The notes: generated from the letters alone by a model not told the origin. Shown: positions 1 through 62,565, counted from the stretch's first letter. The stretch: 64,000 nt of DNA from Candidatus Stackebrandtia faecavium (GCA_019112895.1 DXIM01000143.1:1-64000); one strand, 5' to 3'. Numbers and translations are program-made.

Positions 1-1
1 G

Positions 2-82
2 AAGTCGATCTTCTTCGAGTCCTCTGCCGATGCGCTGGGCATCCGTCTCGATCAGCCGCCGGTGAAATTGGAATGCGCATGA
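2..82 (+). CDS. 3' end of an upstream CDS (partial, ...KSIFFESSADALGIRLDQPPVKLECA*), product unknown
   Basis: Open frame from window edge to TGA at 80-82; too short to assign. Confidence 0.3.
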   Translation, partial: KSIFFESSADALGIRLDQPPVKLECA

Positions 83-239: not shown

Positions 240-1301
240 ATGGCTGGCCTAGGCCACATTGATACCCATGCCGCGACTAAGCGGCCATCGAAATCGGCAC
301 CGCCCCTGCCTTCGCCACGATTCAGCAAGCGTTCAGCCATCACGGCGGTCGCCGCGATCGCCGCGGTGATGCTGCTCATCGTGGTGGGAAAGGCAGTCGG
401 AAATCCACTGCCCTCGAAACCCGAAAGCATCGTCTCCGACTTCTTCGCCCACATTAAGGACGGAGATGCGGAAGAAGCATTGCTTCTTATGCACTCGTTC
501 CCTACGGGCGAAGCCGGCCGGTTCCTCACCCGCGATGCCTTGGGCAACGACGGCTGGGAGGTGACGCGGGTCGAGGAAGCCGACGGCGAAGACGACGAGC
601 GACGCTCCGTAGACATCACGATCGACGGCCCCGACGGTGAGGTCGACAGCACCGTCGAACTCGATTACGTCGATGATGAAGGCTGGCGCATCAGCAGCGA
701 GCTGTACCAGGTCATGTTCGAGCCTTCTTCCCTGCGTTACTCCCAGATCAACGACGTCATCGCTCCGCTACGCAGCGACCAGGCCTACTACCTACTCCCG
801 GGCATCTATGACTTCTACCCCTCGAACGAATCGGTGCGTACGCGCCAAGCTCCCGAAATGGTGACCTTCGGCGATCCGGCAGCGGAGTTGGTCACCTTGA
901 CCGGCCTCACGGTGTCCAAAAAGGGTGCCGAGGCGGTAGAGCAGGAAGTCGAGACAGTCATCGACGGGTGCCTTACGTATGCGACGTTGTCGCCGGACGG
1001 GTGCCCGTTCGGGCTTGACGAGCACATACTCGGCAAGAACGAAGACGTCCATACGCTCCGGGACCTGAGCTGGGACCTCGTCGAGTATCCCGCCACGGAC
1101 GTGGTGGCCGACAGTTTCGGATCTCTCGCTATCTCGACCACGGAGCCCGGAACGGTCGAGCTCACCGGCACGAACACCGACACCGATAAGCCGTTCAGCA
1201 AGGAGTGCGAAATGAACCTGGACGGTTCGTCGGTCTACTTCGCCTCCGACGGGACACCCTCGGTAAAGCTCAGCTCCACGACCTGCCGGTATCAGGACTG
1301 A
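240..1301 (+). CDS. Membrane-anchored extracytoplasmic paralogue 1 (subtype A), unknown function
   Basis: GGAG upstream of ATG; N-terminal TM (AITAVAAIAAVMLLIVVGKAV); SDFFAHIKDGDAEEAL, PTGEAGRFLTRDAL, LLPGIYDFY, IDGCLTYATLSPDGCPFG, LSWDLVEYP, C-terminal EC...C. Confidence 0.85.
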   Translation: MAGLGHIDTHAATKRPSKSAPPLPSPRFSKRSAITAVAAIAAVMLLIVVGKAVGNPLPSKPESIVSDFFAHIKDGDAEEALLLMHSFPTGEAGRFLTRDALGNDGWEVTRVEEADGEDDERRSVDITIDGPDGEVDSTVELDYVDDEGWRISSELYQVMFEPSSLRYSQINDVIAPLRSDQAYYLLPGIYDFYPSNESVRTRQAPEMVTFGDPAAELVTLTGLTVSKKGAEAVEQEVETVIDGCLTYATLSPDGCPFGLDEHILGKNEDVHTLRDLSWDLVEYPATDVVADSFGSLAISTTEPGTVELTGTNTDTDKPFSKECEMNLDGSSVYFASDGTPSVKLSSTTCRYQD

Positions 1302-1484
1302 CCACAACCGCGTTCACGCCGCCACCCACACCTCGCCGCGTAACCACCAAGCCCTACCGGTCCGCGCAGCCTCCCGATGCGAGGCTGCGACAGCCACGTG
1401 ACACGTTCCGAAACGACAACACGGATGCGCTCGCGCGCCCGTTCACCGCACCCACAAGCAACGCCATCAACACGAAAGAGCACT

Positions 1485-2597
1485 GTGACCACCAAGACTG
1501 CTGAAGACACCAGGCGCGCGCTGAACGCCAAACGGGCGGCCATCGAGGCTCAGCGACCGTCCCGCCTCAGTGACCGGATCGGTCCGATCTGGTTCCGGCT
1601 GATGGTGATCGCCATCGCATTCGCCGTACTCGCGGGGGTCATGGCCGTGGGCTTCCAGGCACAACCGACGCCGGTCTCGGTTGTGCGGAACTATCTGGAG
1701 GCCATCCGCGACAAGGATGTGGACGCGGCGATGTCGTATGTCAGCAATCGACCCACGGGCGCACGCGCACAGTTTCTGACGCCGGAAGCGCTGAGCGACG
1801 AGTGGACGATCAATTCCGTCAAGGACGACGAATTCACTGAGGGCATGGTCGTCGCTGAAATGTCCGCGAAGACCGGTAAAGAAACGCTGTCCCTCACAAC
1901 CCGAGACACGCCCAACGGCTTGGTGATCGAGAACCCTTTCGTGGAGGTTTCCTTCGCCGGTTTGCCGTACGACTACGCCGAGGTCAACGGACTGGTTGCC
2001 CCTGCCAGGACCTATGTGCTCTTCCCCGGCGCCTACACCTTCTACGAGAGTGCTGACGACACGTTCGACAGGTCTGAGGAACCGCAGCTGCTCACTATTG
2101 ATGAATACGACGATGACAGCATTTCCGACGATTCCATGGAGTCTGGGCGCACGCCACCGACGAAATGGAAGGTCACGGACACTGCTGTGAAGAAGGCTCA
2201 GGATGCGCTCGAGTCGAAACTCGATGAGTGTGCGGAACGCTTCAAGGTACTGCAACCGCACGCGTGCCCATTCGGTACGCAAGGCGTTGTCTCCGGCGAC
2301 GACGGGCTCGAATCCCCGAGCGATCTGCAATGGACAGTCAAGGAATACCCGCGCATCAATCTGAAGAGCCAGACGAGTCCCGTGTTCGAATCGTCCACAC
2401 GCCAGGCCACCGTGGTGGTTGAGGACAGTGGCGTCATACAACTGCGCGGCAAGGGATACGACCGTTACGGCAAACAAGTCGATTTCTCGATCGACTGCGA
2501 AGTCAACCTTGAGGGATACACAGTGACAGCCGATCAGCGATCCGAGCTGTCCCTGCATCCGTTTGATCCCGTACGCGAGCGCGTTTGCCAGCTATAG
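1485..2597 (+). CDS. Membrane-anchored extracytoplasmic paralogue 2 (subtype A), unknown function; GTG start preferred over 1377
   Basis: VTTKTAEDTRR start resembles MTTETAE/MTTDTGK starts of paralogues 5 and 7; PTGARAQFLTPEAL, YDYAEVNG, LFPGAYTFYES, LDECAERFKVLQPHACPFG, LQWTVKEYP. Confidence 0.85.
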   Translation: MTTKTAEDTRRALNAKRAAIEAQRPSRLSDRIGPIWFRLMVIAIAFAVLAGVMAVGFQAQPTPVSVVRNYLEAIRDKDVDAAMSYVSNRPTGARAQFLTPEALSDEWTINSVKDDEFTEGMVVAEMSAKTGKETLSLTTRDTPNGLVIENPFVEVSFAGLPYDYAEVNGLVAPARTYVLFPGAYTFYESADDTFDRSEEPQLLTIDEYDDDSISDDSMESGRTPPTKWKVTDTAVKKAQDALESKLDECAERFKVLQPHACPFGTQGVVSGDDGLESPSDLQWTVKEYPRINLKSQTSPVFESSTRQATVVVEDSGVIQLRGKGYDRYGKQVDFSIDCEVNLEGYTVTADQRSELSLHPFDPVRERVCQL

Positions 2598-2629
2598 CCC
2601 ATTGTGTCTACAGACGGGAAGCCCACTAC

Positions 2630-3775
2630 ATGAACACTGAAGAGCCAAGACTCGAGATAGTCAAGACCCGCACCGAACGTGTTCGCGATGCCGTAGCGCG
2701 GCTGCGGCCGTACCGCGGCCGGATCAAACTGGGCCTCGTCGCCGTCGTCGTTTTGATCATTGCCGGTTTTATCGCGATACCCAAACTGTTCCCGAAGGAG
2801 GTCGGGCTCGTCGATGACTACCTGTCCGTCTTGCAGGACGGCGACGCACAGGCGGCGATCGACATCGCGGACGGAGGTAAAGCCGAACGGTCATTCAAGA
2901 CCTTCAACCGGGACAACCCCATCGCCTACGACCCCTCTTTTCTGACCTCCGACGCCCTGCGCACCGACTGGGAGTACCACTCGCTGGAGCTGGGGGCCCC
3001 CGAGCGCGGACCGCAATGCGATTGCACGCCGGTTTACGCCACACTGGCCGACGGCGATACCGAAGTCCTCAGCCGGTTCGACGTCGGTACCGACGAAGAC
3101 GGTCAATGGCTCATCCAGCCTTATGCGCAGACGGACTTTTCGGGACTCGATACGAATCCGGTCACTATCGACAAAGCCACGCACGCCATCGAGTTCGGAA
3201 ACGAGGTCGAGCCGTATCTGGTGTTCCCCGGTACGCATGTCTTCGCCGAAGCGTCCGAAGTATATGAACCCAACGAAGAGGATTCCCGCGTGCTGTGGAC
3301 GGCCGGCGGCAGCAACTTCTCACCGCCAGGGGCGGATCTACGCAAGGACATGCGCACGAAGCTGCGGGACGCTTTCACGGAATATCTCGACGAGTGCGCG
3401 GAGTCTTCGGACGTCTTTCCGCAGCATTGTCCGTTTAGGGCCGCCTCCCATGCCGACGACGACTATGTGAGTACCGCTCAGAACGCCTATGTCGGGCTAA
3501 AGGACGTGCAGTGGCGCATCGAAAGCGAGCCCACGGTCCATTTCATAGCGGACACACAGATCAACTGGGTCACCGGCGAGTACGACCCCATCAACGGCGT
3601 CGTCGAAGAACCCGGTGAGGCCGTCATCACCGCAAAGACGGCGGAAGGCGAGAGCGTCGACGCCACATGTGCCATCAGCGGCCAAATCTGGGCCCGTGTC
3701 GATGCCGACACGCAGATCAAATTCACGGCCGAATCCGACACCGGCTCCTCCACGCAGTGCCGAGAGAACACATAG
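2630..3775 (+). CDS. Membrane-anchored extracytoplasmic paralogue 3 (subtype B), unknown function
   Basis: ATG at 2630 (MNTEEPRLEIV); TM; LVDDYLSVLQDGDAQAAIDIADGG, SFLTSDALRTDWEYHS, VFPGTHVF, LDECAESSDVFPQHCPF, VQWRIESEP. Confidence 0.85.
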   Translation: MNTEEPRLEIVKTRTERVRDAVARLRPYRGRIKLGLVAVVVLIIAGFIAIPKLFPKEVGLVDDYLSVLQDGDAQAAIDIADGGKAERSFKTFNRDNPIAYDPSFLTSDALRTDWEYHSLELGAPERGPQCDCTPVYATLADGDTEVLSRFDVGTDEDGQWLIQPYAQTDFSGLDTNPVTIDKATHAIEFGNEVEPYLVFPGTHVFAEASEVYEPNEEDSRVLWTAGGSNFSPPGADLRKDMRTKLRDAFTEYLDECAESSDVFPQHCPFRAASHADDDYVSTAQNAYVGLKDVQWRIESEPTVHFIADTQINWVTGEYDPINGVVEEPGEAVITAKTAEGESVDATCAISGQIWARVDADTQIKFTAESDTGSSTQCRENT

Positions 3776-3820
3776 TACTCAGTAGATCTGAATCCCACCG
3801 AACCTCTTCAAGGACGAGCA

Positions 3821-4969
3821 ATGACCGAAGCCATAAGCGACAGCAACGATGAAACCGAAACCGAGACACCCCGAAAACCCTGGTACTCCTGGTTTGCGCG
3901 CCACAAGGTGCTCACGATCGCGGCCAGCGGAGCCTGCATCGCGATCGGTGTCGCGACGGTGTTGGTCGTCCCCGCACCGGCGTCGACGTCGGAAAGGCTC
4001 GTCGACGAATACCTGTCCGCACTTCAGGACGGTGACGCGTCCGCGGCATTGGAGATCGCCGGTGGGGGCGACACAGACGGGGCCCTCAAATCGCCGACCG
4101 GAGGGGACAACACCCGCCGCAGCGTCATCGCCAGTGACTTCTTGACCGACGACGCGACCGGTACAGATTGGGCGACGGAATCAGTCCGCGAGATCAACAC
4201 CGAAATCGTGCACGAAACCGACGACCGGGTCGTCGAACTGACGCGCGTCCTGGCGACGGGAACCCACGAGGATCAGCTGTTGCGAGGGCTGTTCACCGTC
4301 GTCGACGATTCGCGCGAGGACGGAGTTTACCTGGAAAAGCCCTTCGCATACATCGATACTGGGGCTTTCCAAGACAGCGTCCTCGCCATCAACGGCACCG
4401 CGGTGAGTATCGACGAGGCGTCACCGTCAATGGTCGCTATCTTCCCGGGTGCTCACGAGGTGTTCACCGGTTCGGATCTGTTCGAGTCCAAGGACCCGCA
4501 GTCGAGCCTGATGGCTATGCCGCCGGCACCGATCAAATTGTCGGTGCCAGATCTGCACTTCACGGATAAGGGAGAGGACGCGGCGAACACGGCAGTCAAG
4601 GACCGCTTGGACGAATGTGCGCGGTCGACCGCAACACATCCCAAGAATTGCCCCTTCGGTGGCGACGATATCGGCTGGGACGACGAGGATCCCCAAGGCA
4701 TTTGGACCAATGACGGTAGCTTCAGCGATCTCAAGGACCTGGAATGGGAGATCGAGACGTATCCCGAGTTCGACTTCAGGGTCTCAGGAACCAAGGTGAC
4801 GGCCGCCGTCACAGACCCAGGTTGGGCCACATTGTCCGGTAAGTCCAAGGGCAAGAAGTTCAGTGTGGAATGTGAGATCGGCAATGTGATCGGCAATTGG
4901 ACGGCCGATCAGCGGATGTCCTTCGACTCATCGGAAAACAGGCCACCCGGACTCTGTACTACCGCATAA
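3821..4969 (+). CDS. Membrane-anchored extracytoplasmic paralogue 4 (subtype B), unknown function
   Basis: LVDEYLSALQDGDASAALEIAGGG, DFLTDDATGTDW, IFPGAHEVF, LDECARSTATHPKNCPFG, LEWEIETYP, VECEIGNVIG...C. Confidence 0.85.
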   Translation: MTEAISDSNDETETETPRKPWYSWFARHKVLTIAASGACIAIGVATVLVVPAPASTSERLVDEYLSALQDGDASAALEIAGGGDTDGALKSPTGGDNTRRSVIASDFLTDDATGTDWATESVREINTEIVHETDDRVVELTRVLATGTHEDQLLRGLFTVVDDSREDGVYLEKPFAYIDTGAFQDSVLAINGTAVSIDEASPSMVAIFPGAHEVFTGSDLFESKDPQSSLMAMPPAPIKLSVPDLHFTDKGEDAANTAVKDRLDECARSTATHPKNCPFGGDDIGWDDEDPQGIWTNDGSFSDLKDLEWEIETYPEFDFRVSGTKVTAAVTDPGWATLSGKSKGKKFSVECEIGNVIGNWTADQRMSFDSSENRPPGLCTTA

Positions 4970-5017
4970 GGACGCCTTTCTATCCCCCATCGGGCGACCG
5001 AAACTCACGGAGCACAC

Positions 5018-6151
5018 ATGACAACTGAAACCGCCGAGTCCTCAGACGATTCTTCAACCGCCTCCCGAGCCACTCGACAAGCGGTGTTGGCCCGCATGCG
5101 CCGGGAACGCCACGATTTCGTTCCCGAAACGTGGTCGACACGCTGGCGGCGCCACCGGCGCCGTGTCGGCGTTGTCGCGATCGTCCTCCTCCTCGTAGTG
5201 ATGGGAGGCATCGTCACGGCGAGGTTGATACCTGACGCCGAAGGCACAGTCCGCTCGTATCTCGAGGCCATCCACGACGGCGACGTGGAGGCCGCGCTTG
5301 AATACGTGGAGCACCGCCCCACCGGACAGGAAGCACGCTTTCTCGTGCCCGAAGCAATGTCGCAGGACTGGTCGATAGTCGGTGTCTCCGGCCCCACCCG
5401 TGACGGCGATGACGAAGTCAACGCCAGCATCGAGTCACACGGCAGCGTCGCCCACGCGTCCTTCCATGCCGATCAGGACGAGAAGGGCGACTGGTACATA
5501 GACGACCCGTTTGAATACGTGGAGTTCCTCGGCTCGCCATTCGAATACGCCGAGGTCAACGGTGAAGTCGCAGAACCTGGGGTCTATAGGGTGTTCCCGG
5601 GCGCATATACATTCCGGCACGACATCGACGGGCTGCTGTCGATTCAGGATACGCCACAGTTGATGATGCCGCGCCACGATTCATCGCAGGTCCCCGTATC
5701 TGCCGATGCCGACATCGAACTTGGTGACAACGCCCCGGACCGGATACAAGAAGCCGTCAACACACAACTCGATGCTTGCGCCGAAGCCCTGGTATCCGAT
5801 CCGTCCAACTGCCCATTCGGGACCTCCGTCTCGCGGCACCCGAGCGAAGGCAGCCTCCCATTCACGCCGAAAGACTTGCACTGGACCATCAAGGACTACC
5901 CGATGGTGAAGGTCGACGAGACTGCACCCGAGAGGTACGACAGGTCTCCACCGCTGTTCACCGCGGAGATCGTCCAAGAGGGAATAGCTACATTGAGTGG
6001 CACCAGGGTCGTGGATCGAAGAACCGAGGAATTCACGCTCGAATGCCCCATATCGGGGACGACCTGGAGCGTACACATCGCTGAAGGTGGGGAAATCGAC
6101 CTCAGCAGCGATTTCACACCGGGTGCGGACTGCGAACACGGAAGGCAGTGA
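5018..6151 (+). CDS. Membrane-anchored extracytoplasmic paralogue 5 (subtype A), unknown function
   Basis: TVRSYLEAIHDGDVEAALEYVEHRPTGQEARFLVPEAM, FEYAEVNG, VFPGAYTF, LDACAEALVSDPSNCPFG, LHWTIKDYP. Confidence 0.85.
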   Translation: MTTETAESSDDSSTASRATRQAVLARMRRERHDFVPETWSTRWRRHRRRVGVVAIVLLLVVMGGIVTARLIPDAEGTVRSYLEAIHDGDVEAALEYVEHRPTGQEARFLVPEAMSQDWSIVGVSGPTRDGDDEVNASIESHGSVAHASFHADQDEKGDWYIDDPFEYVEFLGSPFEYAEVNGEVAEPGVYRVFPGAYTFRHDIDGLLSIQDTPQLMMPRHDSSQVPVSADADIELGDNAPDRIQEAVNTQLDACAEALVSDPSNCPFGTSVSRHPSEGSLPFTPKDLHWTIKDYPMVKVDETAPERYDRSPPLFTAEIVQEGIATLSGTRVVDRRTEEFTLECPISGTTWSVHIAEGGEIDLSSDFTPGADCEHGRQ

Positions 6152-7263
6152 TTGACGTGCGCAAGATGACATACACCGGCCTACTCTCTTCGGTACACCA
6201 ACGGATACTCGCCACCGCGAGGTGGTGTAGGGCACGACCGTGGCGCAGCGCGGCCATCGTGGTCAGCGGCTGCGCGATTGCCGTGGCGACGGTGGTGATG
6301 ACCCCCAACAATTCGACTAAGGAAATGGCGCTCGTCGACGATTACCTGTCCGCGTTGCGGCACAAAGACGCCCAGAAGGCCATCGACATCGCGGACGCAG
6401 GACACTCAGGCCGATCGTACGATATGGACTCTTCGAACACTCCATCGGATGCGCTGTTGACAGATGAGGCGGTGGGCACCGACTGGGACTACCACACCGT
6501 CGAGATCGGATCCCAAACCAAGATGGACGACGTACTCACCACCACTGTGTACGCGACACTGACTCACGGGAAACAGGAGGCGCTCAGCCGTTTCGACGTA
6601 ATGGAACAACGCGAGGAAATGTGGCTGAGCAGACCCTACGCTGTCGTGAATCTACACGATCTGCAAGCCGACCCCGTGACGATCGACGACGCTACGGAAA
6701 CAGTGACTGACTCCGGCGATGGCCTGGTCTTCGCTTTCCCCGGCGCTCATCAGATCCTGGCGGACTCGACGGTCCACACCATCGACGGGTCCGCTGACGT
6801 CCTGTGGGTGCCGGGCGACAGCAACCCGCCTCTGCCCATGGCCACGGTGCGAGACGAGGTCGCAACGTCCGCTCAGGAGGCGTTCGAGGCACGGCTCGAT
6901 GAATGCGCGGAATCCACGCAACTGTCACCGAAAGCCTGCCCGTTCGGTGTCCTACCGCACCGATTGAACACTGCCGCCGACTTCGACGCGGATGAGGATT
7001 TCGGCAAGGTCTCCTGGGAAGTCGATACGTACCCCCGCCTGGAATTCCGCAGTACCGGCGTGCGTGATTTCGAGGATCGAGCCCCGCACATGAAGGCGAC
7101 GGTTGTCGAATACGGCTACCTGACGGTATCCGCTTCGACCCCGGAGCCGTTCGAGGCCGAATGCGCGTTCACCGCCGACCTCATCGTTCGAGTCCCCGAA
7201 CCGGATGAATTCCAGTTCTTCGCCGATCCCCTGGAATACAACGACTGCGTCGATTATCGCTAA
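6148..7263 (+). CDS. Membrane-anchored extracytoplasmic paralogue 6 (subtype B), unknown function
   Basis: GTG start overlaps stop of paralogue 5 by 4 nt; LVDDYLSALRHKDAQKAIDIADAG, LLTDEAVGTDWDYHT, AFPGAHQIL, LDECAESTQLSPKACPFG, VSWEVDTYP. Confidence 0.82.
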   Translation: MIDVRKMTYTGLLSSVHQRILATARWCRARPWRSAAIVVSGCAIAVATVVMTPNNSTKEMALVDDYLSALRHKDAQKAIDIADAGHSGRSYDMDSSNTPSDALLTDEAVGTDWDYHTVEIGSQTKMDDVLTTTVYATLTHGKQEALSRFDVMEQREEMWLSRPYAVVNLHDLQADPVTIDDATETVTDSGDGLVFAFPGAHQILADSTVHTIDGSADVLWVPGDSNPPLPMATVRDEVATSAQEAFEARLDECAESTQLSPKACPFGVLPHRLNTAADFDADEDFGKVSWEVDTYPRLEFRSTGVRDFEDRAPHMKATVVEYGYLTVSASTPEPFEAECAFTADLIVRVPEPDEFQFFADPLEYNDCVDYR

Positions 7264-7307
7264 ACCCAAGCATTCCGACGAAGCACCATGCCCCCTACGG
7301 AGCAGAA

Positions 7308-8405
7308 ATGACAACTGACACTGGCAAGGCCCCAACGGCCCCGCTCGATCCACCTGCGACCCCACAACCACCGATGTCGAGATGGGTGAAACACCGCAAA
7401 GCGATCATTGCCGCCGTTGCCACAGCCGTAGTGGTGGCCGGGTGCATCGGTGTATCGCGCACGATTGGCGAGGGTCCCGCCAACACGGTCATGTCGTATC
7501 TGAACGCGATCCGCGACGGCGACATGGATGCTGCATTCGAATACGTGCGCGATCGTCCTACGGGTGAGCAAGCGCGCTTCCTCACCCCTGAGGCAATGTC
7601 GAACGAATGGGACCTGACTGGGTTCACCGAACACGAGTCGACAGGGAACCTGGTCCCGGACATCGAAGTCGAGCTCTCCACACACGACACCACAGTCAAA
7701 GGAGGGTTCAACACCTCGCAGGACGCCAACGGAAAATGGTACATCGAGGAGCCATTCGTGAATGTCGATTTCACCGATGCCCCATACGATTTTGCACAGG
7801 TAAACGGAGAGACAGGACCAACGGGCAAATACCCGCTGTTCCCCGGCTCTTATAGCTTCTACGAAAACAACGAAGTTGTATCCTTTACGGACTCTCAATG
7901 GGTCATCGTGCCGACGGCCGACGTGCAGCGGCCCCAATCAACCGTGGTCGACTTCGAATGGGAACCGGAACCGCAAGCAGGGTCGAATGCCCAAGATGAC
8001 CTCAACGCTAAGGTCGACGCCTGCGCGGAATCGACGCTTCCTAACCCGCCCGGTTGTCCATTCGGTTTCGAGCCCGGCTTCCTTCCGGCTGACCGCAGTG
8101 GAGATCCGCCGTACCACGTCAAAGATATCGGCTGGAGCGTCGTCGAGTACCCGACAATCAAAGTCAGCAAGCAAAAACGGAATGACCATGCTGCGTACAT
8201 CTTCGGTGTGGAAGTCGCGCAAGCGGGCGTAATCGCCGTCACGGGAACCGAGGTAGTGGACGGCGAGGACGTCTCGTTCCGCGCCGAATGCGACTTCGAA
8301 CCACAACTGACGTACGCACATCTCACACGCGGCAATGAGTTCGAGTTCGAGAGCGGCACAGGCGACGGTGTCTACGAGTGCGATTTCTCTAAGAAGGATG
8401 GCTAG
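7308..8405 (+). CDS. Membrane-anchored extracytoplasmic paralogue 7 (subtype A), unknown function
   Basis: TVMSYLNAIRDGDMDAAFEYVRDRPTGEQARFLTPEAM, YDFAQVNG, LFPGSYSFYEN, VDACAESTLPNPPGCPFG, IGWSVVEYP. Confidence 0.85.
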   Translation: MTTDTGKAPTAPLDPPATPQPPMSRWVKHRKAIIAAVATAVVVAGCIGVSRTIGEGPANTVMSYLNAIRDGDMDAAFEYVRDRPTGEQARFLTPEAMSNEWDLTGFTEHESTGNLVPDIEVELSTHDTTVKGGFNTSQDANGKWYIEEPFVNVDFTDAPYDFAQVNGETGPTGKYPLFPGSYSFYENNEVVSFTDSQWVIVPTADVQRPQSTVVDFEWEPEPQAGSNAQDDLNAKVDACAESTLPNPPGCPFGFEPGFLPADRSGDPPYHVKDIGWSVVEYPTIKVSKQKRNDHAAYIFGVEVAQAGVIAVTGTEVVDGEDVSFRAECDFEPQLTYAHLTRGNEFEFESGTGDGVYECDFSKKDG

Positions 8406-8407
8406 CC

Positions 8408-9535
8408 ATGTCCAGCGATGAGGCTCGGGAAAAAATCACAATCAAACAACGCGGAGTCGCGTTGTGGGAAGCACTCAAGAAGCATCCCGTCCGCAACGCG
8501 GTTATCAGTGGCGCGTGCGCGATCTTGGTAGTGACCGGTTTGGCCGTGATTCCGCAGTTGTCCGACGAGGAGATCCAGCTCGTTGACGATTATCTCGCTG
8601 CCTTGCAGCAAGGCGATGCCGAGGCGGCGATCGCAATCGCGGACGGTGGTGAGAAGGATCGCTCATATCTGTGTGAGGACGGCCATTGCGACCACGACGA
8701 CTCGTTCCTTATCGATGAAGCACTTCGGACAGACTGGGAATACGAGTCACCGGTATTGGGACACAAGACCGAGGATGGCACGCAATCGGTTACGCACGTG
8801 TCCACCACACTCAGTCACGGCGACCAGGAAGTCCTCAGCGGATTCAATGTCGTGCAGGAGCAGGACCAGATGTGGCTCCGGCAGCCGTATGCCATCGTCA
8901 ACATGGCGTCATTCGAGATCCAGCCGGTGTCGATGGATAACGCCACGCTTACAGTCGAGACGGCGCCCGACGAGTCCGAGTACTTCGTTTTCCCTGGGCC
9001 CCATCGGATGATGGCGGACTCGACAATGTACCGGCTTCCCAAGGGCGATACCGATGTGCTGTGGGCGACCGAAGCAGTCGCGCTCGATAACGATGCCCGG
9101 CCGAAGGTACAGCTCCGAAACAAGGCCCAGACAGCGGCCCAGCAGGGTTTCGAGAAGTACTTGGACGAGTGCGCGACCGAATCGACGATAACTCCCTCGG
9201 GGTGCCCTTTCGGCGCTCACGAAGGGCCTTCAGTCGAAACGTCGTCCGACAGATACGAGAACATCAAAAATGTGAAGTGGGAAATCACGACATACCCACA
9301 GTTGGAATTCACTCCCGCATACACCTACATCAACGCAAGGGACGCCGTCAGCACGATCGAACACACGACCACTGCACCCGGCTACGCCGTCATCACCGCA
9401 GACTCGGAGGATGGCTCCTTCGAGGCCGAATGCGAGATCCGGGCGGAAGCTGTCGAGGTCTCTGTCCCGGAACCGATGAAGTTCGAGTTCTCGTCGCGCA
9501 ATATCTATTACAGAGCGTGCGCGGAATACGAATAG
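8408..9535 (+). CDS. Membrane-anchored extracytoplasmic paralogue 8 (subtype B), unknown function
   Basis: LVDDYLAALQQGDAEAAIAIADGG, SFLIDEALRTDWEYES, VFPGPHRMM, LDECATESTITPSGCPFG, VKWEITTYP, EAECEIRAEAVEV...C. Confidence 0.85.
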   Translation: MSSDEAREKITIKQRGVALWEALKKHPVRNAVISGACAILVVTGLAVIPQLSDEEIQLVDDYLAALQQGDAEAAIAIADGGEKDRSYLCEDGHCDHDDSFLIDEALRTDWEYESPVLGHKTEDGTQSVTHVSTTLSHGDQEVLSGFNVVQEQDQMWLRQPYAIVNMASFEIQPVSMDNATLTVETAPDESEYFVFPGPHRMMADSTMYRLPKGDTDVLWATEAVALDNDARPKVQLRNKAQTAAQQGFEKYLDECATESTITPSGCPFGAHEGPSVETSSDRYENIKNVKWEITTYPQLEFTPAYTYINARDAVSTIEHTTTAPGYAVITADSEDGSFEAECEIRAEAVEVSVPEPMKFEFSSRNIYYRACAEYE

Positions 9536-9595: not shown

Positions 9596-10339
9596 TCACC
9601 CGCCGGCGTCACGGTCGCGTTGCGCACGCACCGCCTCGGCTTGCGCGGCCGAGGCATCCGCCTGACGTTTCAGCGCCCGCGACTTGGACGCATACTCGTC
9701 GATGTAGTCCTGCCCGGACAGTTCCATAAGCGCGTACATGATCTCATCGGTGACGGCCCGCTCCACGACGCGTTCGTCGGCCATGCCCGTGTACCGGGAG
9801 AAGTCGATCGGCTCGCCGATCTTGATGCGGACCCGGCCGATGCTCGGCAAGCGCTTACCGATCGGTTGGAGCTCGCCGGTGTTCAACATCGCCACCGGGA
9901 TGACCGGAGTCTGCGATTTCAACGCCAAACGCGCCACCCCGGTCTTGCCGCGATACAGCTTGCCGTCAGGAGAACGCGTGCCCTCGGGGTAGATGCCGAA
10001 CAGCTCTCCCTCGCGCAGCACCCGCATACCCGTCTCCAACGCGGCGTGCGCGGACCTCCCTCCGGAGCGATCCACCGGGATCGCACCCACACCGGTGAAG
10101 AAAGTACGGCTGCCCCAGCCCTTGAGTCCCTTACCGGTGAAGTACTCAGACTTAGCGATGAAAACGATCTTGCGCCGCACCACCAACGGCAAGAAGATCG
10201 AATCGGAGAACGACACATGATTACTCGCCACTATCGCCGGGCCGTGCGCGGGAATATTCTCCAAGCCCTCGACCTTGGGTCGATAGATCATCCGAAGCCA
10301 CGGACCAACGACTACCCACTTCAGCGCGTTATACAGCAA
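9596..10339 (-). CDS. plsC: 1-acyl-sn-glycerol-3-phosphate acyltransferase family (PlsC-like)
   Basis: NHVSFSD (NHx4D) and PEGTRSPDGKLYRGKTGVARLA motifs. Confidence 0.85.
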   Translation of the reverse strand: MLYNALKWVVVGPWLRMIYRPKVEGLENIPAHGPAIVASNHVSFSDSIFLPLVVRRKIVFIAKSEYFTGKGLKGWGSRTFFTGVGAIPVDRSGGRSAHAALETGMRVLREGELFGIYPEGTRSPDGKLYRGKTGVARLALKSQTPVIPVAMLNTGELQPIGKRLPSIGRVRIKIGEPIDFSRYTGMADERVVERAVTDEIMYALMELSGQDYIDEYASKSRALKRQADASAAQAEAVRAQRDRDAGG

Positions 10340-10489: not shown

Positions 10490-11263
10490 GTGTCCGTCAT
10501 GAAAGGCGCTGAGCCCATCCATTTGGACGCCGGTCCAGACGCTCCGGCCTCCATCGTGTTCTGTCACGGTTTCACCGGTACACCGGCCTCGATCCGCCCC
10601 TGGGCCGAATACCTGCACGAGTGCGGTTACCACGTCGCCGCCCCCCGACTGCCCGGGCATGGAACCCGCTGGCAGGACATGGCAAAGACCCGCTGGCCCG
10701 ACTGGTACGGCGAGCTCGAACGCACGGTCGACGCCGCATTGAACCGCGGTAAGCCGGTGTTCGTGTGCGGCCATTCCATGGGCGGCACCCTGGTCCTGCG
10801 CCTAGCCGAGGAACGCAACGACGAACTCGCGGGCCTCGTCGCGTGCAACCCGTCCCTGTTCGATGCCCGCCCGACAGTGAACTACCTGGTTCCGTTTATT
10901 CACCCGTTCGTGCGTACCGTGCCGGGGATCGGTAGCGACATCGCCAAACCAGGAGGGATCGAAACCAGCTATTCGAAGGTGCCGCTGGCCGCTTTGAACT
11001 CCCTGCGCGTGCTCTGGAAACTCGTCCGTAAGGACCTTCACAAGATCACGCTGCCGGTCCGGGTTTTTCATAGTGCCGTCGACCACGTCGTGGACACGGT
11101 CAACACGCAGATGTTGCTGAAGGGCATACGCTCCAAGGATGTCGCCGACCACGTTCTGCCGCGTAGCTATCATGTGGCCCCATTGGACTACGACGCCCAA
11201 CAGCTGTGCGAAGGCACAGCCGAATTCGTGGCGGAGCGACTGACTGTGCTGCAGGGGACATAA
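10490..11263 (+). CDS. Alpha/beta hydrolase (carboxylesterase/monoacylglycerol lipase type)
   Basis: HGFTGTPASIRPWAEYL, GHSMGG nucleophile elbow, C-terminal SYHVAPLDYD. Confidence 0.85.
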   Translation: MSVMKGAEPIHLDAGPDAPASIVFCHGFTGTPASIRPWAEYLHECGYHVAAPRLPGHGTRWQDMAKTRWPDWYGELERTVDAALNRGKPVFVCGHSMGGTLVLRLAEERNDELAGLVACNPSLFDARPTVNYLVPFIHPFVRTVPGIGSDIAKPGGIETSYSKVPLAALNSLRVLWKLVRKDLHKITLPVRVFHSAVDHVVDTVNTQMLLKGIRSKDVADHVLPRSYHVAPLDYDAQQLCEGTAEFVAERLTVLQGT

Positions 11264-58738: not shown

Positions 58739-58933
58739 CTAGGTCAGCACCGGCTCGGATAGCCGGCCCATGTCCTCGGTAGAACTGACTTCAGCTGTCA
58801 ACCGATCGTTCTCGGCGCGCAACCGCGTCATTTCGAATTCGAGATCCCGTACTTTCGCACGCAATTTTGTAACCTCGTCGAGCATTCGCCGGTCTGGTGT
58901 CTGCCCAACGTGGCCATATAGGGCCTTCGCCAT
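58739..58933 (-). CDS. Small coiled-coil protein (64 aa), unknown function
   Basis: MAKALYGHVGQTPDRRMLDEVTKLRAKVRDLEFEMTRLRAENDRL; heptad-like pattern; own terminator. Confidence 0.7.
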   Translation of the reverse strand: MAKALYGHVGQTPDRRMLDEVTKLRAKVRDLEFEMTRLRAENDRLTAEVSSTEDMGRLSEPVLT

Positions 58934-59366
58934 GGTGTCTCCTTGCGAGCGCGTAGCCGAGGTTACGCTGGAGGCGCACCCCGTAGCTTCGCATGTCGTT
59001 TACAATTAGCGCCTCACCGGGCGATCGCCCGGGGCTTTGCATCGTGCGAGGCAGTTATGAAAGCCACTGTCTTGTGGCTACTTCAATCCTCCGCCTCCAG
59101 AGGTTCTTTCGTCAACCTTTCTTAAGACTATATAACAATCAATTGTCACGCAGCAAAAACAAGATGACCTTGTCGCGTCTACGACATGCTGCGTTGTTGA
59201 ATGCGTGTCAACGACAGAACCAAGAGCCCCATTCTGCCAGAACATGCACGCACGTGAATATATAGGGTCGATTTTAGTGGGATGAGACACCGCGCGCAGC
59301 CATACGCTGGACTTCGGCGCCGATCCCTGAAGAACACTCACCGAAGCGCTTTCGTAGGGTCAAGCC

Positions 59367-60206
59367 ATGCCTGAGCTCCCCGAAGTCGAAGTGATCCGGC
59401 GCGGCGTCCAGCGGTGGGCCGCCCAGCAGCGCATCAGCGAGGTCGAAGTCACGCACCCGCGCGCGATCCGTCGGCATCTGCCAGGTGCCGAGGATTTCCG
59501 TGCGCGCCTTCGTAACGCGGTTATCACCAGCGTAAATCGACGCGGTAAGTACCTGTGGCTGGCGCTCGACACCGGCGAGGCATTGCTATGCCACCTGGGC
59601 ATGTCGGGGCAGCTGCTCATCACCGACGACGACGCGCCCGTTGGCAAGCATCTTCGCGTCCGTTTCGAGTTCGAGGAGCCCGGCCACGAACTTCGGTTCG
59701 TCGACCAGCGCACGTTCGGGGAAATGCTTGTGGACAATCCCGCAAATGGCGGACCACGACATATCGAACATATCGCTTTCGATGTATATAATTCTGAATT
59801 CGATATTGCGTCTACGACCGCCCGAATAAGAAAAAGTAATCGCGGCATTAAACGAATACTATTGGATCAAACGGTTATTTCGGGAATCGGGAACATTTAC
59901 GCCGACGAGGCACTGTGGCGCGCACAACTGCACGGTGAGCACCCGGCAAATCAACTCGCGACAGGACAGGTGCACGACCTCATCAGCCACGTCAGGGCCC
60001 TGTTCGACGAGGCCATCACGGCAGGCGGCACCTCGTTCGACGCGCTGTACGTCAATACCAACGGCGAATCCGGTTACTTCTCGCGCGGCCTGTCCGCCTA
60101 CGGCCGGGCCGGTCAGCCCTGCCGACGATGCCACGCCACGATCGTCCTCGAACGATTCATGAACCGCTCCAGCCACTACTGCCCTTCCTGCCAGCCAAAA
60201 CGTTAG
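59367..60206 (+). CDS. mutM: Formamidopyrimidine-DNA glycosylase
   Basis: MPELPEVEVIRRGV, DQTVISGIGNIYADEALW, C-terminal zinc finger CRRCHATIVLERFMNRSSHYCPSCQ. Confidence 0.93.
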   Translation: MPELPEVEVIRRGVQRWAAQQRISEVEVTHPRAIRRHLPGAEDFRARLRNAVITSVNRRGKYLWLALDTGEALLCHLGMSGQLLITDDDAPVGKHLRVRFEFEEPGHELRFVDQRTFGEMLVDNPANGGPRHIEHIAFDVYNSEFDIASTTARIRKSNRGIKRILLDQTVISGIGNIYADEALWRAQLHGEHPANQLATGQVHDLISHVRALFDEAITAGGTSFDALYVNTNGESGYFSRGLSAYGRAGQPCRRCHATIVLERFMNRSSHYCPSCQPKR

Positions 60207-60361
60207 CCGAGTGCTCCGTGCATCGCGGCGACGAGTGGCAGGTGGGCGGCGGTCTCGTTGTGGTTGCCCGCGATTTGCAGTCAGTGCATATCCGGGCCGG
60301 TTCAGTCGCGGCATCGATGCCAGAAGTGCGTCTCGATGAGACGGAATACTGAGCCTCGGCG

Positions 60362-60667
60362 TCAGGCGACCTGAACCCGCTGGTCGCCCATCACGTACTC
60401 GACGGCGAGGCCGCCGCCGACGGCCTCGAGGTAGCGACGGATCGTGCCGACCTTCGCGCTGTCGAGGTCGCCGCTCTCGACCTTGGAGACCTGGCGCTGA
60501 CCGACGCCGATCCGCTCGGCGAGCTGCGCCTGGGTGAGGCCGGCCTGCTCGCGCAGCTCGCGCAGACGGTACGCGCGGACCTCGGCGAGCATCCGCTCCT
60601 TGTGCCGGTCGATCTCGGCGCGATCGACCGGGTACTTCGCGAGCAGTTCCTCGTAGCTCAGTGCCAT
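60362..60667 (-). CDS. XRE-family antitoxin (HigA-like) of a TA module
   Basis: MALSYEELLAKYPVDRAEI...LRELREQAGLTQAQLAERIGVGQRQVSKVESGDL. Confidence 0.8.
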   Translation of the reverse strand: MALSYEELLAKYPVDRAEIDRHKERMLAEVRAYRLRELREQAGLTQAQLAERIGVGQRQVSKVESGDLDSAKVGTIRRYLEAVGGGLAVEYVMGDQRVQVA

Positions 60668-61017
60668 CTCGATCACTCTCAGTCTGAGCAGGTGGTCGTC
60701 GAACAAGTCGTCGGCCAGCGGGATGTTCTTCTTGCACCAGCGGGTCCAATTCCCGGCCTTGTCCCCGGCGACAAGCATGATCGCCGATCGCGCGGGGTCG
60801 AAAGCAAACAGGATCCGCAACTCCGAGCTGCCCGTGGAGCCCGGCCGGAGCTCCTTCATGTTCCGGTGCCGGGACGCAGTCACGGTGTCCACGAGTGGAC
60901 GACCGAGCTGCGGGCCGTTCTCTTTCAGTACCTCGATTGCGCGAACACCTGCGCCCTGGACCCATCATCCAGAGACGCGACCCAGACTTCGATCGGGCTC
61001 GCGTCTATGTTCCACAT
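60668..61017 (-). pseudogene. HigB/RelE (Gp49-like) toxin gene disrupted by a frameshift
   Basis: MWNIDASPIEVWVASLDDGSRAQVFA in one frame and AIEVLKENGPQLGRPLVDTVTASRHRNMKELRPGS...NWTRWCKKNIPLADDLFDDHLLRLR in another; break at about 60938-60943. Confidence 0.75.
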
Positions 61018-61121
61018 GCTATTAGCATGAACCGTGCAGGGTCTATGGGCAATGCCGCGCCCGGAAGGGTCACAGCCGCCGAGTGATTCTCTGGATCCTC
61101 AGGAGATGCAGAGTAGCCCCA

Positions 61122-61316
61122 ATGTCCAAAGAAGAATGTTTCGATGTCGCTGCCGCGGCGGAGCGGTACGACTGCAGCATCAAGACCATCCGGAGGCGCA
61201 TCAAGAACGGGAGCCTGCCGGCCCGCACTGAGAAGATCGACGGCCGCGACGGACGCCCGGTCCTCAAGACCATGATCAGAGTCGTCGATCTGGACGACAC
61301 GTTCGAAAGGGCATGA
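61122..61316 (+). CDS. Small HTH/excisionase-like DNA-binding protein, possibly truncated by frameshift
   Basis: FDVAAAAERYDCSIKTIRRRIKNGSLPA. Confidence 0.6.
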   Translation: MSKEECFDVAAAAERYDCSIKTIRRRIKNGSLPARTEKIDGRDGRPVLKTMIRVVDLDDTFERA

Positions 61317-61609
61317 GGAACATGTCCGGAGGATCCGCGCGTCGGCACCGCCGCTGACGGTCGAGCAGAAGATCGCGATCCGCGAAATCTTCCTCGAACA
61401 CCTCCTGGAACGTGAGGCGAAGCGGAAGAGCGTCGGGGCTGGTGAGGGCTCGGCCTAGATAGCGGGCACTGCGGCGCTTCATGGATTAGGCGGCCGGGCT
61501 GAGCAGCGCTTGCTATGGAGGAATCAAGTGGAAGGAAACGTCATTCCCGCCCCGCCATGTGGTCTGTCTGCAACGGAACGATCAAATGTTTGAGAACCGC
61601 TCCGGGCCG

Positions 61610-61795
61610 TTACACGGTACGGCGAAGCCCGTCGAGCAGCAGGCCGCTGAGCCGGTCGCATCGGGCTTGGGCTTCGGGGGAGTCTTTGAGGTCCCAGAGG
61701 CCGCAGAGGGCAAGCAGGACGTCGTCTGCGCTGAGGTCGGCCCTGATAGTTCCTTGCTCCTGTCCTGCAGTGAGGAGCATCGCCAGACAGCACCT
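61610..61795 (-). pseudogene. C-terminal remnant of a TetR-family regulator
   Basis: LLTAGQEQGTIRADLSADDVLLALCGLWDLKDSPEAQARCDRLSGLLLDGLRR; no N-terminal HTH seen upstream. Confidence 0.6.
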
Positions 61796-61934
61796 GGGGC
61801 GTGTCCGAGTGCCTGAACGCGAGACCGACTGGTGCGTAGCGCACGACAATCCGGGTCTTCGCGCTCTCGACGTCGAGAGCGTGACGCTCGGAGTTACCGG
61901 CGACTGCAGAGACTGGCGGAGCGCTCGGTTGTGC

Positions 61935-62483
61935 TCATCCGCGTTCATCCGACCGGGCAGAGCCGGCCCGATCGTCGCGATCGACGGCGAACGCGAAATG
62001 CGGCATGCGTACGCCACGAGAATCTTTCTCAAAACGTCCGCGCACCGTCATCCCCAGTCGGATCGCGACATTCATCGACGCGATATTCATATCGCGCACC
62101 TGCGCATACAAGCGCTCGACACCAAGCGAATCGAAAGCGTAGTCACGGCACGCCCGCGCGGATTCCATCGCATAACCGCGATGCCAGTACGCCCGATTGA
62201 ATAGGTACCCGACCTCGATCACGTCCTCACCGAGGATTCGTTGTCGAGTAAGGCCACACTGCCCGATCATCTCGTCGGTTCCCGCCAGCACCACCGCCCA
62301 CAGTCCGAAACCGTCCTGGCGGTACCGCTGCTCCATTCGCTGCAACCAGTCGCGCGTCATGCGGTCGTCGAAAGCACCCTCATAGGCAACCATGGCCTGC
62401 GGATCCTGCATGATCGCGCACAGCTGGGTGAAATCCCCATCGGTCATTTCGCGAAGCCGCAGACGTTGGGTCGCAAGAATCAT
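61935..62483 (-). CDS. GNAT-family acetyltransferase (RimJ/RimL type)
   Basis: LATQRLRLREMTDGDFTQLCAIMQDP, GYLFNRAYWHRGYAMESARACRDYAFDSLGVERLYAQV. Confidence 0.87.
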   Translation of the reverse strand: MILATQRLRLREMTDGDFTQLCAIMQDPQAMVAYEGAFDDRMTRDWLQRMEQRYRQDGFGLWAVVLAGTDEMIGQCGLTRQRILGEDVIEVGYLFNRAYWHRGYAMESARACRDYAFDSLGVERLYAQVRDMNIASMNVAIRLGMTVRGRFEKDSRGVRMPHFAFAVDRDDRAGSARSDERG

Positions 62484-62531
62484 AGGACCCCACCCTCTTC
62501 TCGCACTGGTGTCAACTCACGACCACGAAAA

Positions 62532-62565
62532 CGCGGCAGCGACCTGCAATGAGGCAGCTGCCGCG
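62532..62565. terminator. Hairpin downstream of rnc
   Basis: CGCGGCAGC-N16-GCTGCCGCG, perfect 9-bp arms. Confidence 0.5.

What the first reader, a model, noticed from the sequence alone, without database searches (positions are those of the whole stretch)
240..9535. Array of eight tandem, divergent membrane-anchored extracytoplasmic paralogues
Seen: eight consecutive + strand genes of about 353-396 codons. Each has a short basic/polar N-terminus, one TM helix and a ~300 aa outer region. Shared landmarks in nearly all: a (D/S)(Y/F)(L/F)xx(I/L)(x)DxDxxxA(I/L/A/M/F) helix after the TM; (F/L)PGx(Y/H); Lx(D/E/G)C-x(8-10)-CPF; Wx(V/I/L)xx(x)P; and a C-terminal EC...C. Gaps are 2-48 nt, with one 4-nt overlap (5/6) and a 183-nt gap (1/2), so most are probably one operon. 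Inference: the post-TM helix resembles NTF2-like/DUF4878 envelope domains, but I cannot assign the larger C-terminal domain. Eight retained divergent copies suggest a multi-subunit surface assembly, specialised receptors/decoys, or a diversifying family. I see no neighbouring enzyme that would explain the function.
Basis: partly seen in the sequence, partly recalled or inferred. Interest (0 to 1): 0.78.

Follow-up and report, generated by a model that had tools for sequence, protein, structure and literature searches.

The report
Tandem array of paired surface proteins
One actinobacterium carries a row of eight (probably ten) related membrane-anchored outer-face proteins that turn out to be copies of an ancient two-gene pair; relatives usually have one such pair next to a changing partner gene, and the whole set evolves unusually fast, but nobody knows what it does.

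Summary
Eight intact + strand paralogues (353-382 aa) fill 240-9535, each with one N-terminal TM helix and four invariant cysteines. They are not eight equal copies. A tree splits them into two ancient types, A (genes 1,2,5,7) and B (3,4,6,8), in the order A-A-B-B-A-B-A-B. In other genera the unit is a translationally coupled A->B pair, so the array is best read as four pairs: 5/6, 7/8, and pair 2/3 lying inside pair 1/4. Synteny with a congener places contig C91, which ends in another A-B pair, directly upstream: about ten genes in five pairs, where the congener has one pair. The outer part starts with an NTF2-like domain, distantly related to DUF4878 and mycobacterial Rv0361; the C-terminal domain stays unassigned. 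Relatives have exchangeable neighbours: a divergent PQQ propeller beside A-B pairs, a divergent Ig-like-looking membrane protein ("C") beside singles, or an M48 protease. Family and partners evolve several-fold faster than most flanking genes. Most likely they are A/B heteromeric surface binding modules duplicated for divergent specificities; ligand and function are unknown. No match to known defence or phage families; a type VII secretion link is only a lead.

The parts
1..82 (+). Frame ending ...LECA*: possibly the 3' end of another B-type member cut by the contig edge
   Evidence: By eye it resembles family C-termini (FxFxSS...C); too short for a profile score. Synteny is the real argument that a member lies upstream.
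240..1301 (+). Gene 1, type A (subtype I), 353 aa
   Evidence: sister of the A gene on contig C91 (98/98 support)
1485..2597 (+). Gene 2, type A (subtype II), GTG start, 370 aa
   Evidence: groups with genes 5 and 7
2630..3775 (+). Gene 3, type B (subtype II), 381 aa; pairs with gene 2
3821..4969 (+). Gene 4, type B (subtype I), 382 aa; by phylogeny the partner of gene 1, separated from it by pair 2/3
   Evidence: Sister of the B gene on contig C91; mirror-tree test
5018..6151 (+). Gene 5, type A (subtype II), 377 aa
   Evidence: AlphaFold model pLDDT 74
6148..7263 (+). Gene 6, type B (subtype II), GTG start inside the GTGA overlap with gene 5, 371 aa
7308..8405 (+). Gene 7, type A (subtype II), 365 aa
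8408..9535 (+). Gene 8, type B (subtype II), 2 nt after gene 7, 375 aa
   Evidence: AlphaFold model pLDDT 77
9596..10339 (-). Acyltransferase (PlsC-like), convergent flank; conserved right border of the locus
   Evidence: Pfam PF01553 E 5.5e-31; 79% identical to the gene right of the single A-B pair in a congener
10490..11263 (+). Alpha/beta-hydrolase (carboxylesterase-like, by sequence reading), right border of the syntenic locus
   Evidence: 71% identical to the syntenic gene in the congener

Best explanation
The array is a lineage-specific tandem expansion of an ancient two-gene unit. Each unit encodes a type A and a type B protein, both with a short cytoplasmic N-terminus, one TM helix and an extracytoplasmic region made of an NTF2-like domain plus a C-terminal helix/beta-sheet domain tied by two probable disulfides. 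A and B are made together by translational coupling and most likely assemble into a membrane-anchored heteromer that binds something at the cell surface. In relatives this module has an exchangeable partner: a TM-anchored PQQ beta-propeller, a TM-anchored Ig-like-looking protein (C), or an M48 membrane protease. Five pairs here (four complete in this contig) would be paralogous heteromers with divergent ligands. SHOWN: paralogy, A/B split, pair conservation and short or overlapping junctions, synteny, partner association, fast evolution. INFERRED: heteromer formation, disulfides, ligand binding, divergent specificities, and any function.
For: A and B types in the tree, with (1, C91-A)/(4, C91-B) and (2,5,7)/(3,6,8,C92) as matching subtypes. 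A->B order and short or RTGA junctions recur: L045, L046, L056 GTGA; L073, L092, L093, L095 ATGA; window 5/6 GTGA; L044, L052, L103 and window 7/8 within about 11 nt. A and B distance matrices agree: r=0.71 for 15 pairs, 0 of 20000 shuffles as high; for the five pairs of this genome alone r=0.92, 2 of 120 permutations as high. A congener has one A-B pair exactly between the genes that flank C91's pair on the left and the window array on the right. PQQ-propeller partner next to A-B pairs in 6 loci, C partner beside about 26 members in 15 genomes, mostly head to head; labels clustered on the tree (19 changes, shuffled mean 43). M48 next to or fused with members. Four shared cysteines. Rv0361, carrier of the related domain, was found in membrane and on the surface of M. 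tuberculosis (PMC2891697). Members and partners share similar high dN where flanking genes are mostly conserved.
Against: No direct evidence of an A-B complex; a multimer prediction was not possible. The partner genes are missing beside the window array; the only propellers found elsewhere in the genome are weak matches and the C copies lie in other contexts. No recurrent neighbour names a ligand or pathway. Genes 1 and 4 are pair mates only by phylogeny. One B-type copy stands alone on C92. The C91-C105 junction is inferred: the contig ends do not overlap. Part of the partner clustering on the tree comes from close relatives.
Confidence: 0.45

Rival explanations
1. Recognition or decoy array: paralogous surface heteromers diversified by conflict with phages, competitors or hosts.
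For: High dN relative to most flanking genes in both family and partner; tandem expansion with distant copies in one genome; several unlinked copies per genome in relatives.
Against: dN/dS below 1 and even along the protein with no hypervariable patch; no PADLOC or PHROGs hit; flanks are conserved chromosomal genes, not a defence island.
Confidence: 0.15
2. Accessory part of type VII (ESX-like) secretion in actinobacteria.
For: EccE and EccB within about 3 kb of the pair in L052; EccC-like ATPase within 2.5 kb in L097 and L104; mycosin-like protease directly adjacent in L069 and L119 (for L069 TIGR03921 E 2.8e-61 but below cut-off); C-family copies beside a recurrent gene set that looks WXG/Esp-like by eye.
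Against: No T7SS gene near the window array or in most other loci; the Esp-like neighbours have no Pfam or NCBIfam hit over cut-off; proximity was not tested against background.
Confidence: 0.13
3. VirB8/TcpC-like scaffold: two NTF2-like domains behind one TM helix forming a trimeric envelope scaffold.
For: Foldseek top hits of the A model are OrfG (7pkw, E 9e-4) and TcpC (3ub1, E 2e-3); those proteins also have one TM plus two soluble domains (PMC8012802).
Against: TM-scores only 0.10-0.20; the B model does not repeat the top hit; no T4SS or conjugation genes were noticed in any locus inspected.
Confidence: 0.08
4. Substrate-recognition or stress-sensing ectodomain for membrane proteases, later detached from the protease.
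For: M48 fused (L065) or directly upstream (L063, L114) in one clade, and an independent M48(HtpX-like)-A-B-RDD gene order in L044.
Against: Most loci, including the window, have no protease neighbour; the propeller and C partners are commoner.
Confidence: 0.1
5. Largely redundant paralogues under relaxed constraint with no specialised roles.
For: dN/dS 0.3-0.9 and evenly spread; patchy distribution, 30 of 121 family genomes.
Against: All eight keep intact frames, the four cysteines and the motifs after near-saturating divergence; A/B pairing and short junctions are kept.
Confidence: 0.09

Closest known systems
Rv0361 family membrane protein (NCBIfam NF051431) of mycobacteria
   Same: Short N-terminus, one TM helix and an NTF2-like outer domain; mycobacterial-type relatives of the array (L074, L131) score above its cut-off (39.0 and 38.8 against 37 bits); surface location seen for Rv0361 (PMC2891697)
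   Different: The model covers about 140 residues only, no C-terminal domain; window proteins do not match it; no A/B pairs or arrays described in what I read; function unknown
DUF4878 / SnoaL-like NTF2 superfamily domains (PF12870, PF12680)
   Same: Post-TM helix and curved sheet; small DUF4878 proteins in relatives (L070) score with the family profile
   Different: Window proteins miss the Pfam cut-offs; only the first domain is covered
VirB8-like TcpC/OrfG
   Same: One TM plus two outer domains, the first NTF2-like
   Different: Very low TM-score, no conjugation context, second domain of unassigned fold with conserved cysteines
TcaA/YvbJ (from memory, a lead only)
   Same: TM-anchored, NTF2-like domain, beta domain with a ...PG.Y.. 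motif
   Different: No zinc ribbon in the window proteins and no Pfam TcaA-domain hit

Membership tests
NTF2-like superfamily (first outer domain) | NTF2/cystatin-like alpha+beta fold | tested here: met
   AlphaFold models; Foldseek matches to NTF2-like proteins with target TM-score up to about 0.5 over about 100-125 residues; individual E-values are weak, the consistency of hits is the argument
DUF4878 (PF12870) | Score over the Pfam gathering cut-off | tested here: not met
   No hit for the eight proteins; one of 34 family members at E 0.0025; the cut-off is passed by the separate small protein in L070
Rv0361 family (NF051431) | Score over the NCBIfam cut-off | tested here: not met
   Window genes: none. 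Relatives L074 and L131 pass; 10 of 34 family members match at E up to 0.1, best 2.9e-7
VirB8/TcpC-like | Two NTF2-like domains after one TM helix | tested here: inconclusive
   Foldseek E 9e-4 and 2e-3 but TM 0.10-0.20
VirB8/TcpC-like | Encoded with conjugation/T4SS genes | tested here: not met
   None recognised in the window or relatives' loci on reading gene lists; no profile scan for T4SS genes was made
Type VII secretion component | Constant linkage to ecc genes | tested here: not met
   Only L052, L097, L104 have ecc genes nearby, and L069, L119 a mycosin-like gene; none seen in the window
TcaA/YvbJ | N-terminal zinc ribbon and TcaA domain profiles | tested here: not met
   No Pfam hit; no zinc-ribbon-like set of cysteines before the TM helix
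Known anti-phage defence or phage protein | PADLOC or PHROGs profile match | tested here: not met
   0 families for four members and both partner types
A/B heteromer | Direct A-B interaction | not testable with these tools
   Only single-chain prediction offered; indirect support from coupling and mirrored trees

The most novel reading that the evidence does not exclude
A so far undescribed modular surface system of a few actinobacterial lineages: fast-evolving A/B NTF2-like heteromers that plug into exchangeable co-evolving partners (PQQ propeller, Ig-like protein, M48 protease) and, in this species, have been multiplied to five parallel pairs with separate specificities, i.e. a recognition repertoire.
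Probability: 0.25. Interest if true: 0.75.

Novelty: new variant of a known kind. Interest (0 to 1): 0.5.

Why it matters
It defines a coherent protein family that current profile libraries do not name, gives it an anatomy (A/B pair, four cysteines, three partner types) and a clear natural experiment: one locus with one pair in one species and about five pairs in its congener. If the pairs are receptors, this would be a bacterial surface repertoire built by tandem duplication of a heteromer, directly testable by deletion and binding assays.

Tried and rejected
Pfam, NCBIfam, PHROGs and PADLOC scans of the window proteins: nothing over cut-off. PDB sequence search with the family profile: only weak hits (MpAFP Ig-like repeats 2.9e-7 summed over repeats, PBP5, cystatin-like 4qan), not used as evidence of homology. 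Genome-contig scans with mixed A+B alignments failed for lack of conserved stretches; a B-type alignment gave only Actinophytocola and Mycobacterium loci. Two family-wide searches with alignment A6 returned no answer; repeated with A1. sigma-70 promoter scan: no site; terminator-like sites not above chance, so operon limits are undecided. Whether the first 26 codons of the contig are a family C-terminus: too short to score. Paper searches for a description of the family found none. No tRNA or Rfam element in the window.

Full report
CHECK OF THE OBSERVATION. The window is the first 64 kb of a 91-kb contig (C105) of a 3.38-Mb, 195-contig genome. The eight genes are present as described, with gaps 183, 32, 45, 48, -4, 44, 2 nt, pairwise BLASTP E 1e-7 to 3e-69, one TM helix each and four cysteines common to all.

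TWO TYPES, NOT EIGHT EQUALS. A profile of the eight found three more clear members in the same genome: one on C92 and two in tandem at the very end of C91. Trees of 45 and 77 members place the eight into type A (1,2,5,7) and type B (3,4,6,8). Within them, gene 1 is sister to the first C91 gene, gene 4 to the second; 2,5,7 and 3,6,8 form the other subtypes. In other genomes A is followed by B: L044, L045, L046, L052, L056, L073 (Actinophytocola), L092, L093, L095, L103. The junctions are mostly RTGA overlaps or short gaps. In the window 5/6 (GTGA overlap) and 7/8 (2 nt) keep this form; 2/3 is a 32-nt pair; 1 and 4 look like a pair split by 2/3. Distances among A's and among their B mates agree (15 pairs r=0.71, 0 of 20000 shuffles; this genome alone r=0.92, 2 of 120 permutations). 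The between-species part of that agreement is expected from shared descent; the within-genome part is the better evidence. Deep branches joining the A types and B types of different genomes are partly weak, and the second gene of L045 is not firmly placed.

THE LOCUS. In congener G004, one A-B pair lies between a DUF3040-like gene, dinB, a phosphodiesterase and a methyltransferase on one side, and the acyltransferase, a hydrolase and a 206-aa membrane protein on the other (L045). In our genome the first set is on C91, left of its A-B pair, and the second set lies right of the window array. So C91 and C105 are most likely neighbours and the array has about ten genes. The contig ends do not overlap, and the 26-codon tail at the window start is too short to score, so this is an inference.

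DISTRIBUTION. Members were found in 30 of 121 genomes sampled from the same family, in 14 of 44 genera, in all five genomes held of the genus, but in only 3 of 199 genomes across the phylum (E up to 1e-10). No other genome seen has more than two or three in tandem; G217 has three (L131).

STRUCTURE. AlphaFold models of gene 5 (pLDDT 74) and gene 8 (77) from 12-row alignments show a confident NTF2-like first domain, a short beta region with the FPGxY motif, one helix carrying the LDxC...CPF cysteines, and a long antiparallel sheet. Foldseek hits: for A, OrfG and TcpC (E 9e-4, 2e-3, TM 0.14-0.20), for B many NTF2-like proteins. The second domain stays unassigned. NCBIfam's Rv0361 domain is the nearest named profile: relatives L074 (Mycobacterium) and L131 pass its cut-off, 10 of 34 family members match weakly, the window proteins do not. 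Rv0361 itself was detected in the membrane and on the surface of M. tuberculosis (PMC2891697), which agrees with an outward orientation.

PARTNERS. Clustering of neighbours over about 58 loci gave three recurrent partners. (i) A TM-anchored PQQ propeller (PF13360), head to head with the A-B pair in G004, Actinophytocola, G075, G094, G109 and G122. (ii) A TM-anchored protein of about 290 aa without any Pfam hit, which I call C and which looks Ig-like from its sequence only, beside about 26 members in 15 genomes, mostly head to head. (iii) M48 proteases: fused in L065, directly upstream in L063 and L114, and first in an htpX-like-A-B-RDD order in L044. The labels are clustered on the tree (19 changes against a shuffled mean of 43), though close relatives contribute. 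None of these partners lies beside the window array; weak propeller matches and five C-family copies lie elsewhere in the genome. T7SS genes occur near a few members; this was not tested against background and stays a lead.

RATE. Between close relatives, family members and their C or PQQ partners have dN 0.05-0.5 where most flanking genes in the same loci have 0.02-0.2, at similar dS. For example, in L101/L107 dN is 0.23 for the member and 0.22 for C, against 0.02-0.15 for the neighbours. Some other membrane or secreted neighbours are also fast, and short antisense ORFs in that list are probably not real genes. dN/dS by the simple Nei-Gojobori count is 0.3-0.9 for family members, and even along the protein. 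In high-GC genomes this count may overstate the ratio, so only the comparison with neighbours is used. Fast evolution shared by member and partner fits a surface complex; it does not separate diversifying selection from relaxed constraint. The window copies themselves are too diverged for the test.

MECHANISM. I commit to a membrane-anchored A/B heteromer acting as an extracytoplasmic binding module, duplicated to five pairs here (confidence 0.45 for the composite). Heteromer formation rests on coupling, conserved order and mirrored trees, not on a direct test. Ligands are unknown. Rivals are listed with their refutations.

NOVELTY. The fold of the first domain is known and relatives have been named only as membrane proteins of unknown function, so this is a new variant of a known kind: new in its A/B pairing, partner exchange and tandem expansion.

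Noticed in passing
L125 (G000:C37) 2388-6999, also L127 447-1835 and L126 1-513: The same genome has at least three tandem genes for secreted or lipoprotein PQQ-like propellers, plus two more copies elsewhere: a second tandem expansion of a surface protein.
   Followed up: partly
L085 6686-9665, L089 7081-10533, L090 9515-12615: C-family (Ig-like-looking) genes sit in a recurrent cluster with a ~180-aa protein, a ~326-aa protein and a ~186-aa protein that resemble type VII secretion substrates/chaperones by eye but match no Pfam or NCBIfam model over cut-off.
   Followed up: partly
L131 5520-13202: In another genome of the order, three tandem family members are followed by a MoxR-like ATPase and a DUF58-like gene and preceded by a kinase-like gene.
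   Followed up: no
L042 1299-2516: A lone B-type member on an 8.6-kb contig without an A gene beside it.
   Followed up: no
window 58800-62550: Stretch where long ORFs on both strands have atypical codon-position G+C; gene content unclear.
   Followed up: no
L070 9312-10522 and L071 9319-10817: Tandem pairs of small TM-anchored DUF4878-like proteins in relatives that score with the family profile: possible single-domain cousins of the A/B pairs.
   Followed up: partly
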